Source: Dichetophora obliterata
Taxonomy: Eukaryota > Arthropoda > Insecta > Diptera > Sciomyzidae
DNA: 64,000 nt
Direction of reading: 5' to 3'
Assembly (NCBI GenBank): GCA_963920525.1
Contig: OY986438.1
Span: 48,888,288-48,952,287, forward strand
Shown piece by piece: positions 1,561-64,000 of this stretch. The notes beneath the pieces are model-generated. The model saw only the letters and a list, made by a program, of their open reading frames with translations. It did no database searches and had not been told where the DNA came from. Each line of letters begins with the position of its first letter. Within the stretch, counting starts at the first letter, position 1. Position numbers and translations under genes: made by a program.

Positions 1561-2515
1561 TTATCGAATAGCGTTATGGGTTGCACAGCTTAGAAATTCG
1601 GTATTCGACCACAATTTAGACGTACCGTTTCAGTGATGAAATTTTATGGGAGTTGGACAAGGGGGAGGGGCACCTCTCATACAATCCAAATTGGTGATAT
1701 CGAATAGCTTTGAATTTATAGGAATTCAGCTTTGGAATTCAGTTTTTGACCTCAATTTACACATGCAGTTTCAATGATTTTATTTATGGGCGTTGGACAG
1801 GGAGGCCTGACATCTCCCTTACATCCCAAATTTGCAATATCGAATTGCTTTGAAGTTATAGGTTGACAGCGTAAGAAATCGGTATTCGACCTAAATTTAT
1901 ACATGCACTTTCATTTCTTTCATTTTATGGGCGTAGGGAAAAGGGGAGTGACACTTCCCATACAACCCAACTTTGTGCTATCAAATAGCTTTAGAGTTAT
2001 AGGTCGCAAAGCATCGGAATTCAGTATTTGACCAAAATTTACGCATGCATATTTACTGATAAAATTTTTTAGAGTTTGTCGGGGGGCGTGGCACCTCCAA
2101 CTTAACCCAAATTTGCGATATAGAATAGCTTTGGAGTTATAGGTCAGCCTTGGAATTCAGTATTCGACCTCAATTTACACATGCAGTTTCATTGGTAAAA
2201 TTTTATGGGCGTAGGGAAAAGGGGAGTGGCACCTCCCATACAACCCAAATTTGTGTTATCGAATATATTTGGAGTTATATGTCGCACAGTTTTGGTATTC
2301 GGTATTCGACCTCCATGTACACATGCAGTTTAATTGATTACATTCTATGAGGGGTGATCAAGAGGGCTTGGCACTTCCTATACAACCCAAAATTGTTATA
2401 TCGAATAGCTTTGTGGATATAGGTCGCACAGTCTCGGAATTCAGTATTTGACCTCAATTTAGACATGCTGTTTAACTGATAACATTTTATGGGCGTTTGA
2501 ATAGGGAGAGTGGCA
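1561..2515 (+). repeat. Tandem repeat, about 141 bp, seven units
   Basis: Each unit contains GGAATTCAGTATTTGACC, then CAATTTACACATGCAGTTTC, ATTTTATGGGCGT, GTGGCACCTCCCATACAACC, CAAATTTGCGATATCGAATA and GCTTTGGAGTTATAGGTCGC. Unit marks occur near 1588, 1734, 1877, 2015, 2152, 2294 and 2435, spaced 137-146 bp apart. Two further units are present in reverse orientation at 44290-44575. The block looks like the central satellite of the Helitron-like element. Confidence 0.75.
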
Positions 2516-4705: not shown

Positions 4706-5512
4706 TATGTAAAAAAAAATAGTGCAAATTATAAGAAATACTGATAAAGTTTAACTACGAATTAAAAATACTAACATTAATGGGTTACTTTCCTTCTTTT
4801 TGATTTCCTAGATTTAACTTATGTCATATAGAAGTTTGTGGTAAGGAGTGTAACACTTGCTCTTGCAAAGGCAAGGAATTTGCAAAGGCAAGGAATGTGA
4901 CCCATTATCACTTATTACATTACTATGCATTACTATGCTGTACTGGATTTAGGACTAGGCCCGTGAGGCACGGGCGTAAGGCGGCAACATTTTTGAGGGC
5001 TGAAAACTTTTGAGGAAAACAAAAAGTTAGGAACGGAATAAATTTGGCTGCAGCGGAATTGAAAAGGCGGCAAAATATTTTCTTAGCTAGTTTATAAAGA
5101 AACTCAATATGAATCAAATGTTTAAGGAAAACTAACCAGCAAAAACTTCGCTTACAAGCAATGAATAAAATATTGCAAAAAAATCGTGCATTCGATTACT
5201 TTTTGGGTAAAAGAAAGTATTACTTTAACATGGGCATGTCATTGTTTCACCCACAAAAAAATTAAAAATGAATTTTATTGGATTTTTGTTAGTTTTATTA
5301 AGGTACATCATTTTCTGAACGAATGCAAGAAAAAACAGAATTATAATTTATTTAAATTCAATTTGTCGGTGAATAGTGTTTAGTGTTTATTGTAAATTGA
5401 ACATTAATTCAAATTTTAGAGATTTGACTAAATTTACCTTCGAGTAACGACACCTGAGCTGAACTCTCAACATCCAGAACAACAAGGCGTATCTGGCCGA
5501 CTCTAAACCCTC
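4706..5512. other. Spacer, possible retroelement remnant at its end
   Basis: No supportable gene. A short minus-strand open frame at 4923-5117 has no recognised domain. The last 60 bp before 5512 may encode a few residues of the non-LTR element that resumes at 6907, but the match is too short to call. Confidence 0.4.
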
Positions 5513-7639: not shown

Positions 7640-8110
7640 CTTATTGATTCGATTGGCGATTGGTCAGGGCTGCTGGCGGGCCAATCCAAGATCAGTATTT
7701 GTTTTTTGCACAGATATTACATCGATTTTCTTGATTTATGGCATGGTGCGCCATCTTGTTGATAAATATATTCACCATCATTTGATTGAAGTCTTGGAAT
7801 TGATGAAAGTAAATCATTTTGGAAAATATTTATATATTTCTCAGAGTTGACAATTACCAAATCCCTTTGCAGAAATACATCCCAAGACTATTACAGAAGC
7901 TGGAGATTACCAAATCCCTTTGCAGAAATACATCCCAAGACCATTACAGAAGCTGGTTTCTTGACTTTTTTTAATGATACCAATCCTTATGAAACTGTTC
8001 ACCTTTTTTACGCAGCACTTTGGGTCGCGTGTCGCCCATAAAAATTTAAAATCTTGATTCGTCGCTCTCAAAAATTCGCTACCCTTGCAATAAATCTGCC
8101 TCTGGATGTT
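7640..8110 (-). pseudogene. Tc1-like transposase remnant, minus strand
   Basis: All three catalytic blocks of a DD34E transposase can be read on the minus strand: SDESRF near 8055, QDGAPCHKSRKS near 7750 and LDWPASSPDQSPIE near 7665. The distance from the second aspartate to the glutamate fits 34 residues. There are stops, and a 53-bp tandem duplication (7853-7905 and 7906-7958) falls between the first and second blocks and breaks the frame. No terminal inverted repeats were identified. Confidence 0.8.
7853..7958. repeat. 53-bp tandem duplication in the Tc1 remnant
   Basis: ATTACCAAATCCCTTTGCAG and the following 33 bp occur twice, starting at 7853 and 7906, with one clear difference (GACTATT against GACCATT). 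Because 53 is not a multiple of three, the duplication alone would kill the reading frame. Confidence 0.85.
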
Positions 8111-57653: not shown

Positions 57654-57960
57654 GTGGTTTTTATGCTGAAATAAAGTGGTTTATTGTTGAATGAAAAGTT
57701 TTTTAAAATTTTTTATTTTAATAAATTTTAAAAATTTTGATAAAAAAAGCTTAACCTTGGCAAAATTATTGGTAATTTTTACAGCAAAAACACCTACTAA
57801 AACATGCAATAACAATAGCATTCAGCTACTACAGCTTTTTCACACTTTCTCCGCATTAGATCATGTTAATAACCAACTCAAATATCATTGAAATATCTCA
57901 AAGATATCGATAAAAGTGGTCCAAAACAATCAAAAGTAAGAAAAATGGGTATAGTGCCCA

Positions 57961-58680
57961 GTATAGTATAGTATAGTATAGTATAGTATAGTATAGTATA
58001 GTATAGTATAGTATAGTATAGTATAGTATAGTATAGTATAGTATAGTATAGTATAGTATAGTATAGTATAGTATAGTATAGTATAGTATAGTATAGTATA
58101 GTATAGTATAGTATAGTATAGTATAGTATAGTATAGTATAGTATAGTATAGTATAGTATAGTATAGTATAGTATAGTATAGTATAGTATAGTATAGTATA
58201 GTATAGTATAGTATAGTATAGTATAGTATAGTATAGTATAGTATAGTATAGTATAGTATAGTATAGTATAGTATAGTATAGTATAGTATAGTATAGTATA
58301 GTATAGTATAGTATAGTATAGTATAGTATAGTATAGTATAGTATAGTATAGTATAGTATAGTATAGTATAGTATAGTATAGTATAGTATAGTATAGTATA
58401 GTATAGTATAGTATAGTATAGTATAGTATAGTATAGTATAGTATAGTATAGTATAGTATAGTATAGTATAGTATAGTATAGTATAGTATAGTATAGTATA
58501 GTATAGTATAGTATAGTATAGTATAGTATAGTATAGTATAGTATAGTATAGTATAGTATAGTATAGTATAGTATAGTATAGTATAGTATAGTATAGTATA
58601 GTATAGTATAGTATAGTATAGTATAGTATAGTATAGTATAGTATAGTATAGTATAGTATAGTATAGTATAGTATAGTATA
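57961..58680 (+). repeat. (GTATA)n satellite, 144 perfect units
   Basis: Seven hundred and twenty bases of GTATA without a visible substitution. The left border is TGGGTATAGTGCCCA (57946-57960), a small hairpin with one GTATA unit in its loop. The array is open in several frames only because the repeat contains no stop in them. Confidence 0.98.
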
Positions 58681-58963
58681 GTTTTTTTGTTTTTGTTGGA
58701 CGTAGTGATAGCGCGCTATCATCTAGTGGCCCCACGATACTCCACCAGCTCCACCCCGGAACCGCGTCAGCATTTCATCAGGACGGGGGTTTGATTTCGT
58801 AAGATTCCTACGTCCTCCTTAAGCAAGGAGGTTCGGAACTACTGAAGTTTCTCTCCTTTAATATTTTATTTATGTGTCTTTCACACAAAGTCCATGCATG
58901 TTCAGATTTTAGCATTTCGTTCAACAGATTCTCTTCAGTTAATGTAACACCTAGCATATCATT
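58681..58963 (-). other. 3' UTR of the R1-clade element
   Basis: It contains a perfect 16-bp palindrome TGATAGCGCGCTATCA at 58706-58721, about 25 nt from the 3' terminus, and an A-rich end. The GC content is clearly higher than the surrounding DNA. 3' UTR structures are recognised by the encoded reverse transcriptase in related elements, so a role in template recognition is plausible. Confidence 0.75.
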
Positions 58964-59962
58964 TTAAGCTCGTCTCTCCTCCAACCACTTTTCACATTCG
59001 AAAAGTATGTGCTTTGCATCTTCTTCTAGCGCTGCGCATGAATCACAGCTGCTTATTTCTTTAAGTTTAAATCTATGCAGGTATTTGTTAAAACTACCAT
59101 GGTTTGTCATAGCCTGAGTCAGAAAATATCCCATGCTTCCATGTTGTCTTTCCAGCCAGACTTTTATATTGGGGATAAGGCTATATGTCCAGCTCCCGTT
59201 CATGTTTTGATTCCAACGTTCTTGCCATTTAGTCACTACATTGTCCCTGGCATTAATTTTTATTTCTGAAATTTTTTTCTTTCGCTCTTGTGTATTAGTG
59301 TTCGCCCAACTTATAAGTTTAGTTTGGGTATATATTTCTTCTCTTTCCAGTATTAATAAGTCTATTGGTGGCAGACCTGCAAGCACTAAAGCCGCACTTG
59401 TGGACACTGTACGGTACGCTGATATAATACGGAGAGCACTAACTCTCTGTGCTTTCTGTAGTTCCCTCATATTATTCTTCAGATTCAGTGCCCTGACAAA
59501 GGTTGGAGCAGCATAAAGAAGCTGGGAGTGTACTACGCTGTTTATTAATTTTCTCATCTGCGGCCTTGGGCCACCACAGTTTGGCATTATTCTGGCCAAT
59601 GATGCTGCCGTTCGCAAAGCTTTGTCACGAATATTTACTACGTGCTGTCCAAAGCTAAGTTTGTCATCTAATTGCACACCCAAATAGCATAAGCTTCGTT
59701 TAAAGGGTATCTCTCTATCTTGTAGACGTATTTTCGGTATTTTGAAGACCCTACGATCTGTCACTAGAATTGCTTCCGTTTTTGGAACTGCAAGTTTCAA
59801 ACCGTTTCTTCGCAGCCATCTGTTACAATGACATAAGCTATCGTTTACCACTATCTCGATTAATTCGGCAGTTCGCTGGTTTACTACCAGAGCAATATCA
59901 TCAGCGTAACCTATTAGTTTTGCACCTTCTTGTAATTCCAAATTCAGTAGACCATCGTACAT
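58964..59962 (-). pseudogene. ORF2 C-terminal part (palm to zinc knuckle)
   Basis: The open frame of 332 codons starts within the reverse transcriptase palm. The catalytic box IGYADDIALVV is at residues 17-27. It is followed by the thumb (LKLAVPKTEAILV, YLGVQLDDKLSF), a connection region and a C-terminal CCHC-type knuckle (Cys306, Cys309, His318, Cys323) near EERRA. The upstream bases 59963-60040 encode TAGVPQGSVLGPFLWNV in the same frame. The whole stretch is in-frame continuous, but it is out of register with the preceding piece (60052-61593) by a frameshift in the DYLS region at about 60060-60075. Confidence 0.88.
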
Positions 59963-60051
59963 TACATTCCACAGGAATGGTCCTAATACTGAGCCCTGAG
60001 GTACACCTGCTGTTATTTGGTGCTCTTTTATACCATTTTCCGTCTCATAGA

Positions 60052-61593
60052 TTAAAATTCTGTATCCAGATAGTCTGATACTATGTTAAAGAGATAGTTA
60101 TCTAAACGTCGGTTTCTGAAAGCTTGTAGTACTACTTTCCACTTTACTGTGTTAAAAGCATTTTTAACATCTAGTGTTATTATTGAGCAGTATTCTCCTG
60201 TTGTTTTGGCCTGTATAGCTTTATTGCATACTGCGCTAATGGCATCAACTGTACTCTTCCCTTTGCGGAAGCCATGTTGCATAGGGGATAGTCCGCCAAG
60301 GTCATCTATGCGCTCTTCCAAACGTTTTAGCATTACGTACTCTAATAATTTTCCTAGTGAATCCAACGTACAGAGTGGTCTATAGGAACTAGGCTCATTT
60401 AATGGTTTATTTCCCTTTCGTAACAAAACTAACTTTTGTATTTTCCATTTAGCTGGAAAGATTCCGTTTATTAGACATGAATTGAAGACTTCAAGTAAAA
60501 GATCTGGCCATATCTCACATACTACTTTTATGACCTCATTTGGTATACCATCTGGTCCTGGGCTCTTACCTATTTTTAGTTTACTACATGCATGTGTAAT
60601 GTCATCTACGTTCAGAGGGATGAAACCTTCGACTTGATAATTTGGTTCTCTTTTTAGCCCATCTTCATCGAATGGAAATAGTGTTTCTACTATTGTTGTT
60701 GCCCACACTGGTTCTTTAATGCCGGGTATAGGTTTAATGCTACCAAGCTTTTTCATCACAATTTTGTACGGTTTGCCCCATGGGTCGGAATCTATTTCGT
60801 TACATAGCTCTGTCCAGCATCTTTTCTTACTCTCTTTTATGGCTGTTCTTAAGGTTTTACGTGCCGTTTTATACTCAACCGTTAAGAGCTGGTTATCATA
60901 GTTTCGTGTTGACGCTCGACGTGCTGCAAGGCATTTCGCCCTCAACTCACGTATTTTAGCATTCCACCAGTATACTGGGCGCTTGTTATTGTATTTTTGA
61001 GCTCTTGGCATTGCGACATTACACGCTTTTGTGAGTATCTTCGTCAGCGACTCTGCGGCATTTTCTACATTTATATTTTCGGATTGGTTATCCATATTTC
61101 TATCCTTAGCCCGAGTAATATAATCGGACAATTTTTTGTCATCAAGTTTTCTGACGTTCCATCTTGGGAAATTTGCATCTTCTACACTCATATTTGGACG
61201 TTCATCTATATTAAATGAGATATACTGGTGGTCACTTAAGGTGAGATCTTCCAGCACTATCCAATTCATGTTTTCATTGTAGAGGTTTGTCGTTCCAAAG
61301 GTGATGTCGATAATACTACCACCTGTACCTCTCCGAAAGGTAAGTTTGTCTCCGATATTAAATATCGTAAGACCAAGACTAGCAACCATTTCACACACTG
61401 TAGTACCCTTTTTATCCATTTTTTTGGAGTTCCATTCTGTAGATTTACTATTGAAGTCTCCTCCAATGATCACTTTATATTTTGAGGACCTGATAGAAAC
61501 ATCAAGTATGTTAAGGGCTTCTGCAAACAAATTAAAGTCTATATTTGGTGAAAAGTAGCAACTATATACCCTAATTTTGCCCACTGTGACCAA
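60052..61593 (-). pseudogene. ORF2 middle part (endonuclease and reverse transcriptase)
   Basis: The 513-codon frame includes the apurinic-type endonuclease C-terminal two thirds: IRVYSCYFSPN (8-18), IIGGDFNSKSTEWNS (42-56) and LTLSDHQYISF (117-127), with the catalytic SDH. The reverse transcriptase fingers and palm follow: GKSPGPDGIPNEVI (342-355), SYRPLCTLDSLGK (403-415), QHGFRKGKST (439-448) and box A LDVKNAFNTV (474-483, Asp475). It ends at a stop caused by a frameshift. Its ATG is not the ORF2 start; the N-terminus is in the piece at 61539-61727. Confidence 0.92.
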
Positions 61594-61727
61594 ACTTGAG
61601 ATGGTGGGTTTCTGTACGGTTCGCTTATTAAAAGTATGTCTGCATTAATCTCTGTCGCCTTCTGTATCATCAGGTCTTGCGCTTCTCTACCCCGTCCTAG
61701 ATTGATCTGTAGAAATTTCGTGATCAT
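61539..61727 (-). pseudogene. ORF2 N-terminus (endonuclease start)
   Basis: ATG at 61727 opens MITKFLQINLGRGREAQDLM and goes on to ILLISEPYRNPPSQVW (Glu of SEPY is a catalytic residue in this endonuclease family). The frame then runs into unrelated residues and a stop. The adjoining piece in another frame starts only a few residues before IRVYSCYFSP. Relative to R1-type endonucleases a segment of very roughly 50-60 residues is missing, so an internal deletion sits at about 61590-61610. The start overlaps the ORF1 stop as ATGA (61724-61727). Confidence 0.88.
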
Positions 61728-63124
61728 TTTCTTGCTTTATTTCTTATGTTGATTGCACACGCTGTACTACCAATATAATGCTGAGAATTTATTGAGCCAC
61801 TTTCATGGCATAGTATGCATCTCGTTTCCGCTTTGCATTCTTTAGCTCTGTGTCCCGGATTACAGCATTTTCTGCATAGATTGCTTCTATCTGTCCCTTT
61901 ACACTGGCTCGAAATATGACCCTGTTCTAGGCACCTGAAGCATTTCTGAACTCTAATCTTACTCCTCAGCCTACACATAACCCATCCTACTCTGACTTGC
62001 CTCGTACGGAGTAGTGGAGCTGCTAAGTGCTCAGGTAGTTGAACGAGCGCTTGTTTGGTTCCTCCAAACGATGTTCTAAAATTTAATATTTTGAACGTTG
62101 TGGGTTCTTCTACTTTTGTTGCCTTCATAAGAGCATTAACAAGTTCATCTTTATCTGTTGACTCATCCATGTCTCTGATATCAAGAATATGATTTTTGGT
62201 AACCGCTCTAATCATGACATCTTCACCAAGCGTGTTACCTATAGCGTTTCTGAGCTTTTCGGCTTGGCCTTCGCCTTTTTTTAGTTGAACGAGTAAGTCT
62301 CCAGCTTTTGTCCTTCTGATACCACTTATCTCCACACCGATATCAGTGGGATTTACTTGTTGCTTCATCTTTTTTATAACATCTGCGTATGACTCAGACG
62401 TGTTGGATTTAATTGTTATTGCCTCTCCTTGGATTCGCATTTCACGGCGTTTGTTACTTTGATTATCTTTTTTCTTCCTTGCTTTTCGGTGGCTCACTAG
62501 CTCCCAATCATTTGCCACAGCCGGAGTCTCTGGAATATTTATTTCAGCCTGGGTCTGCAGTGCTTTGACTGTTGCAGGTGTTTTCGGCACTTTTCGTTTC
62601 CTCTCTTGGGCAGGAGAAATAGGGTCAACTTGAGTGGCTTTAGATAGCACTTGCTTACGCTCGTCGCATGACAAAACTGGGTTACTACCTATCGCTTCCC
62701 TGTACTCTTTTAGTTGCTGGTACAGTGCGAAAGCACAGTTAAGATTATCGCGTAACGTCTTGTGTATGTTCTTTGCGCCGGAGACAATGCCATTTGCTGC
62801 GCTAAGTTTATTGCCTAACTCAATAAACGCTTTTTCTTCTGAAATTCTGAGCTGACTTTGATGTCTTTTTTCGCCTTCTAAGCTATCTGCTTTACGAGTA
62901 TTCACAGGTGTGCTCGTGTAATCTCTTATGGTACACACATTTTTACCAGGTGGTTTTTCTGACCCCTTTGCTTGCGGTGATCTTACTATCACCGAGCTTT
63001 TCACAAAGGGATTTTTTAAGACATTTTCATCACCGTTCCTCGTGTACAAGTCTTCATCTCCGTTTTCCTTGTTGTAGGTTAGTTTTGTTTTTTCTTGTTG
63101 TTGTTTGTTGTTGTAACTCTCCAT
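61724..63124 (-). CDS. ORF1: gag-like nucleic-acid-binding protein
   Basis: The intact 466-codon frame has a charged N-terminal half (Lys/Glu/Asn-rich, no recognised fold). A central region follows (about 245-375; VNPTDIGVEISGIRRTKAGD and GKGE-like blocks) of the type found in R1-clade ORF1 proteins. The C-terminus carries zinc knuckles: CxxCxxxxHxxxxC at 395-408 (CFRCLEQGHISSQC) and 417-430 (CRKCCNPGHRAKEC), plus a third, wider one (Cys436, Cys439, His449, Cys456). Two to three CCHC knuckles are standard for R1-clade ORF1, which packages element RNA. The ATG at 63124 is the first in frame and lies about 630 nt from the element's 5' end. Confidence 0.93.
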   Translation of the reverse strand: MESYNNKQQQEKTKLTYNKENGDEDLYTRNGDENVLKNPFVKSSVIVRSPQAKGSEKPPGKNVCTIRDYTSTPVNTRKADSLEGEKRHQSQLRISEEKAFIELGNKLSAANGIVSGAKNIHKTLRDNLNCAFALYQQLKEYREAIGSNPVLSCDERKQVLSKATQVDPISPAQERKRKVPKTPATVKALQTQAEINIPETPAVANDWELVSHRKARKKKDNQSNKRREMRIQGEAITIKSNTSESYADVIKKMKQQVNPTDIGVEISGIRRTKAGDLLVQLKKGEGQAEKLRNAIGNTLGEDVMIRAVTKNHILDIRDMDESTDKDELVNALMKATKVEEPTTFKILNFRTSFGGTKQALVQLPEHLAAPLLRTRQVRVGWVMCRLRSKIRVQKCFRCLEQGHISSQCKGTDRSNLCRKCCNPGHRAKECKAETRCILCHESGSINSQHYIGSTACAINIRNKARK

Positions 63125-63750
63125 TTCAATTGGGTCTCAACTCGAAGCCGCTATCGCCGTTTGAAGTGTAGTTACGTTTTGATCCCATGGTTATCTATGC
63201 AAGCAGGGAGGCCATGCGAGGGTTGACATAAGATCCTTATGGGGTATTATGCCAGTGCCGAATCCGTACTAATCAGGAAATATCCATCTGAACCTACACC
63301 ACCAACTCAATGGTGACAAACATTGAACGTACTCCGAGACTCGCTACGTTTTAACGAGACGGAGGGCAACTGTGACATTAACCTATAAGCCATTTCGTTG
63401 GAATTTCACTTCCACTTACTGAGGTCATAGACTGCCACAGTTGTCAGCCCAGGGTGCTTCAAATCCAAAAACAGTATCCAGCAATGCCATAATTAGAACC
63501 GTACTGGGCTTGATCCTAATGCCTTTCGGCGGGTATTGACTAGGGAAACCACAGAGACGTCACTCTCCTAATTACACTTCTCTCGAAGGTACCCTTGTGG
63601 TTGGATACCTAGTTAAGGGCGGTATCCACTCGCCCTGTCACAGGACTTCTTTGGGCACATGCACCACTTTAGTACGCCCTCCATACCTGCCACAACTAGG
63701 GTCCGCGGGGTCGTTACTCCCGTTATCCTATTCTGAGGATACCCTTGCGG
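63125..63750 (-). other. 5' UTR of the R1-clade element
   Basis: Noticeably GC-richer than the host DNA and without open frames of note. At the outer edge, TATCCT and AGGATA (63724-63729 and 63736-63741) can pair as a small stem just before the array resumes. Presence of a long 5' UTR joined to the array indicates that this copy is not 5'-truncated, or only slightly. Confidence 0.7.
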
Positions 63751-64000
63751 ATAGTATAGTATAGTATAGTATAGTATGTATAGTATAGTATAGTATAGTA
63801 TAGTATAGTATAGTATAGTATAGTATAGTATAGTTTAGTATAGTATAGTATAGTATAGTATTAGTATAGTATAGTATAGTATTAGTATAGTATAGTATAG
63901 TATAGTATAGTATAGTATAGTATAGTATAGTATAGTATAGTATAGTATAGTATAGTATAGTATAGTATAGTATAGTATAGTATAGTATAGTATAGTATAG
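63751..64000 (+). repeat. (TATAG)n satellite, right flank
   Basis: Same pentanucleotide and same orientation as 57961-58680, running off the window. It contains irregular units near the element: TATGTATAG at about 63776, a TTTAG unit at about 63833, and TATTAG at about 63860 and 63880. The last 120 bp are regular. Confidence 0.97.

What the first reader, a model, noticed from the sequence alone, without database searches (positions are those of the whole stretch)
57961..64000. R1-clade retrotransposon sitting inside a (GTATA)n pentanucleotide array
The sequence shows the same pentanucleotide array, in the same orientation, on both sides of a 5.07-kb element with a complete 5' UTR and an A-rich 3' end. 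R1-clade elements are known for target specificity (28S rDNA, TTAGG telomeres, AC or ACAY microsatellites). A (TATAG)n-specific lineage would be a further target type. With one copy, chance insertion into a long array cannot be excluded.
Basis: partly seen in the sequence, partly recalled or inferred. Interest (0 to 1): 0.8.

Follow-up and report, generated by a model that had tools for sequence, protein, structure and literature searches.

The report
Retrotransposon that targets TA-rich microsatellites
A jumping gene in what is probably a fly genome inserts almost only inside short-unit repeat arrays, nearly always just after a TA and before a G or C, whatever the repeat unit is, so it is a site-choosing element with an unusually broad but precise rule.

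Summary
In detail: a 5.07-kb APE-type non-LTR retrotransposon (minus strand, 58682-63752) sits inside a (GTATA)n array that runs on both sides. Its exact 25-bp 3' end occurs 221 times in the 1.31-Gb genome. I read the 3' flanks of 100 of those 221 (first in coordinate order): 94 abut a tandem array by a fixed rule (85 reach 24 bp), against 66 of 1273 A-run-anchored control points (1 reaches 24 bp). The family is not (TATAG)n-specific. Units include GATATA (32 of 100), GTATA/CTATA (30, plus 3 variants), GATA (9), GACATA (4), GGTATA, GAGGTA, GCCATA, GCCTTA, rarely CATA and CA. What recurs is the junction: TA then G or C in 86 of the 94. Arrays offering that step on one strand only carry the element in that orientation in 45 of 45. 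Unit arithmetic and imperfect arrays point to a 14-bp target duplication, the usual length for R1. Copies 0.03% apart lie in different units, so one enzyme serves several units. The window copy is broken. Best reading: an R1-type microsatellite generalist, a new variant of the AC/ACAY-targeting kind. R1-clade placement by RT phylogeny was not tested.

The parts
57960..58681 (.). target array, 3' side of the element: perfect (AGTAT/GTATA)n; read on the element's sense strand it is (CTATA)n
   Evidence: TRF; sequence
58682..63752 (-). the retrotransposon copy: 5' end about 63750-63752 (two bases shared with the array), A-rich 3' tail at about 58682-58695
   Evidence: sequence; alignment to 20 other copies; 25-bp 3' end found 221 times in the genome
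61724..63124 (-). ORF1, 466 aa, zinc knuckles near the C-terminus; open in this copy
   Evidence: in L018 its stop overlaps the ORF2 start as ATGA
58964..61727 (-). ORF2 remains: APE-type endonuclease, reverse transcriptase, C-terminal zinc finger; broken by a 92-bp deletion in EN, a 1-bp frame break and an early stop (1004 aa in 11 of 20 other copies)
63125..63750 (-). complete 5' UTR
   Evidence: 5' end shared with the other full-length copies
63751..64000 (.). target array, 5' side of the element, continuing past the window to about 590 bp from the element
58668..58681 (.). inferred 3'-side copy of the 14-bp target duplication (cannot be proven in this perfect array)
63751..63764 (.). inferred 5'-side copy of the 14-bp target duplication

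Best explanation
It is a young, recently active APE-endonuclease non-LTR retrotransposon of R1 type that inserts by target-primed reverse transcription into microsatellite arrays. Read from sequence: insertion into arrays of many different units; a nearly fixed junction (A-tail joined to a G or C that follows TA in the array); orientation that follows the strand carrying that step; a target duplication whose best common length is 14 bp; near-identical ORF2 in copies in different units. Inferred: the ORF2 endonuclease nicks the bottom strand at S-TA (before or after the A; the A-tail hides which), the array strand primes reverse transcription on the A-tail, and the top strand is cut 14 bp downstream, so the array is rebuilt on both sides. 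Also inferred: the need for an array comes from the endonuclease reading about 10-14 bp of repeated TA-step DNA, or from tethering to repeat chromatin; these two are not separated here.
For: Array at the 3' junction in all 40 scored copies and in 94 of 100 less selected ones, 85 of at least 24 bp, versus 66 and 1 of 1273 control points. Junction TA^G 74 and TA^C 12 of 94, versus 2 of 1273 controls with an array and that step. 45 of 45 insertions in GATATA, GATA and GACATA arrays lie on the only strand with TA^S; the pentamer, which has it on both strands, is used both ways (GTATA 21, CTATA 9), and facing copies share one array in L025 and L047. Target duplication: of 22 copies with both ends, 7 hexamer-unit ones allow 8, 14, 20 and so on, and 7 pentamer ones 4, 9, 14, 19 and so on; 14 is the one length from 4 to 39 in both; L037 allows 4 or 14 (15 if an A is counted) and its duplicated internal variant fits only the longer; L042 gives 15; the GATA copy L046 allows 14. 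ORF2 of copies in different units differs by as little as 0.03% (L023 CTATA, L026 GATATA), and units mix on a tree of 23 copies. EN and RT domains.
Against: 3 of 100 3' ends have no convincing array (L096 rearranged, L115, and L104, which the rule flagged) and 4 more only short remnants (L123, L134, L145, L157). 8 of 94 arrays depart from TA^S: two in (CA)n, the rest partly through composite units. The lenient rule also flags 66 of 1273 controls. 5 of 22 copies show no exact duplication (L018, L027, L038, L040, L043; L040 and L043 match 14 with one mismatch by eye) and L039 gives 10. The array baseline rests on 34 kb of random sequence and 58 kb of window; a genome-wide count of arrays did not complete. 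Both samples favour young copies (best matches, or an exact 25-bp 3' end). Copies are not all independent.
Confidence: 0.85

Rival explanations
1. A (TATAG)n-specific lineage, as first proposed, with other units as noise.
For: The window copy and about a third of copies are in GTATA/CTATA arrays.
Against: (GATATA)n is as common (32 of 100; 22 of the 40 best matches), and near-identical copies sit in both.
Confidence: 0.03
2. Insertion is unselective, and copies elsewhere were purged or lost, so arrays are only a refuge.
For: Arrays are presumably harmless ground; a few of 100 lie outside.
Against: Copies are very young (median pairwise ORF2 difference 0.2-0.5% in 21 copies), and a refuge does not explain the TA^S junction or the 45 of 45 orientation.
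Confidence: 0.05
3. The array is made by the element (tail extension or slippage after insertion) rather than being the target.
For: Tandem repeats at the 3' end of LINEs are often tails (recalled).
Against: Same repeat on both sides in the 33 of 40 copies with both junctions read, different units at different loci, and internal array variants found on both sides in L037 and L042.
Confidence: 0.02
4. Several subfamilies, each with its own fixed unit, sharing a 3' end.
For: The two copies in (CA)n and (CATA)n arrays that I compared are older (L162 1.4%, L161 3.6% from the nearest copy), so target preference may have shifted over time.
Against: Among the young copies units are mixed across the tree, with a pair 0.03% apart in ORF2.
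Confidence: 0.08
5. Array recombination and segmental duplication multiplied element plus array, so copies are not independent.
For: Some neighbours look like duplicates (L021/L022, L147/L148, L129/L130).
Against: The 40 copies lie on five large contigs (C1, C2, C3, C4, C6) in seven unit types, with different 5' truncations among the 20 long loci.
Confidence: 0.03

Closest known systems
Waldo and Mino (R1 clade; ACAY and AC repeats)
   Same: R1-clade-type LINE with insertion into short tandem repeats; a few copies here are in CA and CATA arrays, which is that kind of target
   Different: The main targets here are TA^S arrays of many units. Mino in AC repeats is stated in PMC3124438 (passage); Waldo in ACAY is recalled and from the finding; the two defining papers are not held
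TRAS1 and SART1 (R1 clade; TTAGG telomere repeats of silkworm)
   Same: APE-type EN nearest to TRAS1 among solved R1-type chains; A-tail joined to a TAG-type step (SART1: poly(A) joined to AGG, PMC7265360 passages)
   Different: Targets are arrays of many other units; none of the 100 sampled targets is TTAGG
R1 (28S rDNA)
   Same: 14-bp target duplication (many Drosophila R1; some lineages 8, 11 or 13 bp; PMC2718515 passage); EN-RT-zinc finger ORF2 without RNase H
   Different: Target is not rDNA in any of the 100 sampled; EN scores lower with R1Bm than with TRAS1
Togen and some HERO families ((TG)n and other microsatellites)
   Same: Microsatellite-specific non-LTR retrotransposons (PMC4640811 passages)
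   Different: Those belong to lineages with a restriction-like endonuclease according to that paper; this element has an APE-type endonuclease

Membership tests
R1 clade | APE-type endonuclease followed by reverse transcriptase in ORF2 | tested here: met
   PF14529 and PF00078
R1 clade | ORF1 with CCHC knuckles, ORF2 with C-terminal CCHC, no RNase H | tested here: met
   zf-CCHC in ORF1; zf-RVT is below its cut-off, but C926 C929 H938 C943 are invariant in the 36-sequence alignment; no RNase H family listed at E up to 1
R1 clade | EN most similar to R1-clade ENs | tested here: met
   EN domain alone: only TRAS1 1wdu (E 1.9e-16) and R1Bm 2ei9 (1.5e-05) pass E 0.01 among PDB sequences
R1 clade | RT phylogeny places it with R1, TRAS, SART, Waldo | not tested
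   no named reference RTs could be fetched; the nearest named homologues are Lucilia proteins called R1 or R1DM, a database name only
R1 clade | sequence-specific insertion | tested here: met
Waldo/Mino | insertion into ACAY or AC repeats | tested here: not met
   about 5 of 100 targets are CA or CATA type (L128-L132); RT relationship not tested
TRAS/SART | insertion into TTAGG telomere repeats | tested here: not met
   0 of 100 sampled targets
   30 of 100, or 33 with three variant arrays; 11 of the 40 best matches

The most novel reading that the evidence does not exclude
A microsatellite generalist: one endonuclease that recognises tandem arrays as a class, by a TA^G/C step set in repeated TA-rich DNA, with the unit length (4, 5, 6, 10 bp) and most of the unit sequence free. 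It may be recently derived from an AC/ACAY-type target still seen in a few older copies, so one genome would record a target shift within R1-type elements.
Probability: 0.5. Interest if true: 0.72.

Novelty: new variant of a known kind. Interest (0 to 1): 0.6.

Why it matters
Most known site-specific LINEs read one fixed sequence (recalled). Here 221 natural insertions with the same 3' end, 100 of them read, in about ten repeat units (ORF2 nearly identical in the 21 young copies compared), give a ready-made specificity table for an APE-type LINE endonuclease. It suggests which positions matter (the TA^S step, the 14-bp stagger) and which are free. That makes the evolution of R1-clade targets (rDNA, telomere, microsatellite) testable, and points to a compact enzyme with a relaxed but definite target class. 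It also means that such arrays are a regular home of recently active retrotransposons in this genome, which matters for their assembly.

Tried and rejected
Chance insertion, a tail artefact, a purely (TATAG)n-specific lineage and per-unit subfamilies among young copies were tested and rejected. A search for relatives with flanks in bacterial and archaeal contigs found none. The nearest relatives (72-84% in ORF2, P0003-P0009) lie on short unnamed contigs whose flanks could not be fetched. A search with the 5' end of a neighbouring related element mostly hit another repeat. Literature for an earlier report of such a target: the ten paper searches listed no paper that reports it by title or start of abstract, and passages read in eight papers (for PMC7265360 also the abstract) did not either. 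The two key Kojima and Fujiwara papers are not held and Repbase was not available, so prior description is not excluded.

Limits. The 40 copies are the ones scored out of 318 candidates. The 100 are the first listed of 221 (C1, C2 and part of C3), with an exact 25-bp 3' end, so old or 3'-truncated copies are missed. For 7 of the 40 copies the 5' junction was not captured. In one search, 22 copies had both ends. The 97 of 100 that counts remnants was made by eye; the 85 was recounted. The row for L026 is misassigned to a neighbour and not used. Match counts of the gapped pattern are inflated on one strand and not used.
Full report
What is in the window. A perfect (AGTAT)n array fills 57960-58681 and the same array, 96% regular, resumes at 63751 and runs out of the window. 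Between them, on the minus strand, lies a 5.07-kb element with an A-rich 3' end at 58682 and a 5' end at about 63750-63752. ORF1 (61724-63124) has 466 codons and zinc knuckles; ORF2 shows an endonuclease of the APE type (PF14529), a reverse transcriptase (PF00078) and a C-terminal zinc finger. In copy L018 ORF2 is 1004 aa and its start overlaps the ORF1 stop as ATGA. The window copy is broken in ORF2: a 92-bp deletion in the endonuclease part, a 1-bp frame break in the RT part and a stop about 50 codons before the end. Past the window the right-hand array continues, decaying, to about 590 bp from the element.

The host. The window is part of an unnamed 1.31-Gb genome of 76 contigs. The best named homologues of ORF2 and ORF1 are from Lucilia (54-55% and 50%). 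A calyptrate fly is my inference, not a result.

Copies and flanks. A 1-kb piece of ORF2 gave 318 candidates; the 40 scored all show 100% identity as printed. I read the 3' junction of all 40: 20 in 8.9-kb loci, 19 as short pieces, and the window. All 40 run from the A-tail into a tandem array, a few after a G-interrupted tail: GATATA 22, CTATA 6, GTATA 5, GATA 3 (mixed with GTATA units in L042 and further out in L012), GACATA 2, GAGGTA 1, GTATAG 1 on the element's sense strand. Both junctions were read in 33 of the 40, and all 33 have the same repeat on both sides; the 5' side is short or imperfect in L010, L040 and L042. In the other 7 the 5' junction was not captured. Array flanks in the 20 long loci range from tens of bp (for instance the 3' side of L012 and L025) to more than 1.8 kb. 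Some arrays hold two or three copies (as in L012), and copies face each other in L025 and L047.

Less selected sample. The exact last 25 bases before the A-tail occur 221 times in the genome (113 and 108 on the two strands; 0 for the reversed control pattern). I read the flanks of the first 100 in coordinate order (27 already held, 73 newly fetched). A fixed rule flags 94 as tandem arrays: GATATA 32, GTATA 21, CTATA 9, GATA 9, GACATA 4, GGTATA 2, GAGGTA 2, CA 2, and 13 others once each, among them GCCATA, GCCTTA, GATATAGATA and CATA. Eighty-five of the arrays reach 24 bp. Of the 6 not flagged, 4 start with a short remnant (L123, L134, L145, L157), one is rearranged (L096) and one has no array (L115); L104, although flagged, is unconvincing. 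The same rule on 1273 points after A-runs in 34 kb of random genome and in window 1-57900 flags 66, 1 of them at 24 bp or more, and 2 with the TA^G/C step. TRF finds no GATA/GTATA-type array in those sequences.

The junction rule. In 86 of the 94 arrays the base after the A-tail is G or C and the array phase puts TA just before it (74 G, 12 C). The 8 others include two (CA)n and some composite units. Because the tail is A, the cut may lie before or after the A. The step TA^G/C exists on only one strand of GATATA, GATA and GACATA arrays, and all 45 such insertions are on that strand (two-sided p about 6e-14 if independent, which neighbours are not). The GTATA array has it on both strands, and both are used (21 to 9, a mild preference for G, p 0.04).

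Target duplication. Of 22 copies with both ends, 7 in hexamer arrays allow duplications of 8, 14, 20 and so on, and 7 in pentamer arrays 4, 9, 14, 19 and so on. Of the lengths tried (4 to 39) only 14 is common to both. In two imperfect arrays it can nearly be read directly: L037 carries an internal variant on both sides and fits 14 (or 15 counting an A), and L042 gives 15, where the extra base is an A that may belong to the element. The GATA copy L046 allows 14 among others. L039 gives 10 and five copies (L018, L027, L038, L040, L043) give no exact match. Many R1 insertions of Drosophila have a 14-bp duplication, some lineages 8, 11 or 13 bp (PMC2718515, passage).

One enzyme, many units. Among the 20 copies and the window, the median ORF2 difference of a copy to the others is 0.2-0.5%. 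L023 in CTATA and L026 in GATATA differ by 0.03%, and units are mixed on the tree. Eleven of 20 keep the 1004-aa ORF2, 8 the 466-aa ORF1, and 5 both. The family is young and was recently active. The two compared copies in CA and CATA arrays (L162, L161) are older (1.4% and 3.6% from the nearest copy). That hints at a shift from an AC/ACAY-type target, on very few copies.

Relatives. With the EN domain alone, only TRAS1 (E 1.9e-16) and R1Bm (1.5e-05) pass E 0.01 among solved chains. With a 36-sequence profile of the whole ORF2, LINE-1 chains score highest (up to 122 bits, mostly through the RT), then TRAS1 EN with 100 and R1Bm EN with 75 bits. No RNase H family is listed. These features and the 14-bp duplication fit the R1 clade, but an RT tree with named references was not possible. 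TRAS inserts between C and T of CCTAA, and SART1 joins its A-tail to AGG (PMC7265360, passages), a step like the one here.

Reading. The element is best seen as an R1-type LINE whose endonuclease nicks at a TA^S step inside tandem arrays, primes on its A-tail, and cuts the other strand 14 bp away, so that the array is rebuilt around it. Junction, orientation, breadth of units and, less directly, the stagger are read from sequence. That the endonuclease, rather than a chromatin tether, selects arrays is inferred. The ten paper searches listed no report of this target; Repbase and the two main papers on R1-clade targets could not be consulted. I rate it a new variant of a known kind.

Noticed in passing
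L131, L132 (185 bp each): CATA arrays after this element's 3' end run into sequences that, by eye, share short stretches with this element's 5' UTR (CCGCA-GGG start and CCCGCGGACC), suggesting related families in ACAT-type arrays.
   Followed up: partly
L163:4053-4453 and 5450-5501: Pieces of another R1-like element (41-44% in ORF2) end before a short CATA stretch, and what looks by translation like the start of a further R1-like ORF2 follows; a truncated copy of this family (97%) lies between.
   Followed up: partly
L096: The element's 3' end is followed by its own inverted 3' UTR sequence, apparently a fold-back or inverted rearrangement.
   Followed up: no
L161, sense positions about 129-2466: A different LINE (26% to ORF2, AATA-rich tail) lies inside an older copy of this element.
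   Followed up: no
window 1583-2515: Tandem array of a 142-bp unit, about 6.6 copies, 72% matches.
   Followed up: no
window 7853-7956: 53-bp tandem duplication, 98% matches.
   Followed up: no
proteins P0003-P0009, P0123: ORF2 and ORF1 relatives at 71-84% identity in unnamed assembled contigs, so the lineage probably exists in further species.
   Followed up: no
window 57878-58735: The array reads as a long open frame (285 aa of repeats) because the 5-bp unit holds no stop in that frame; not a gene.
   Followed up: partly
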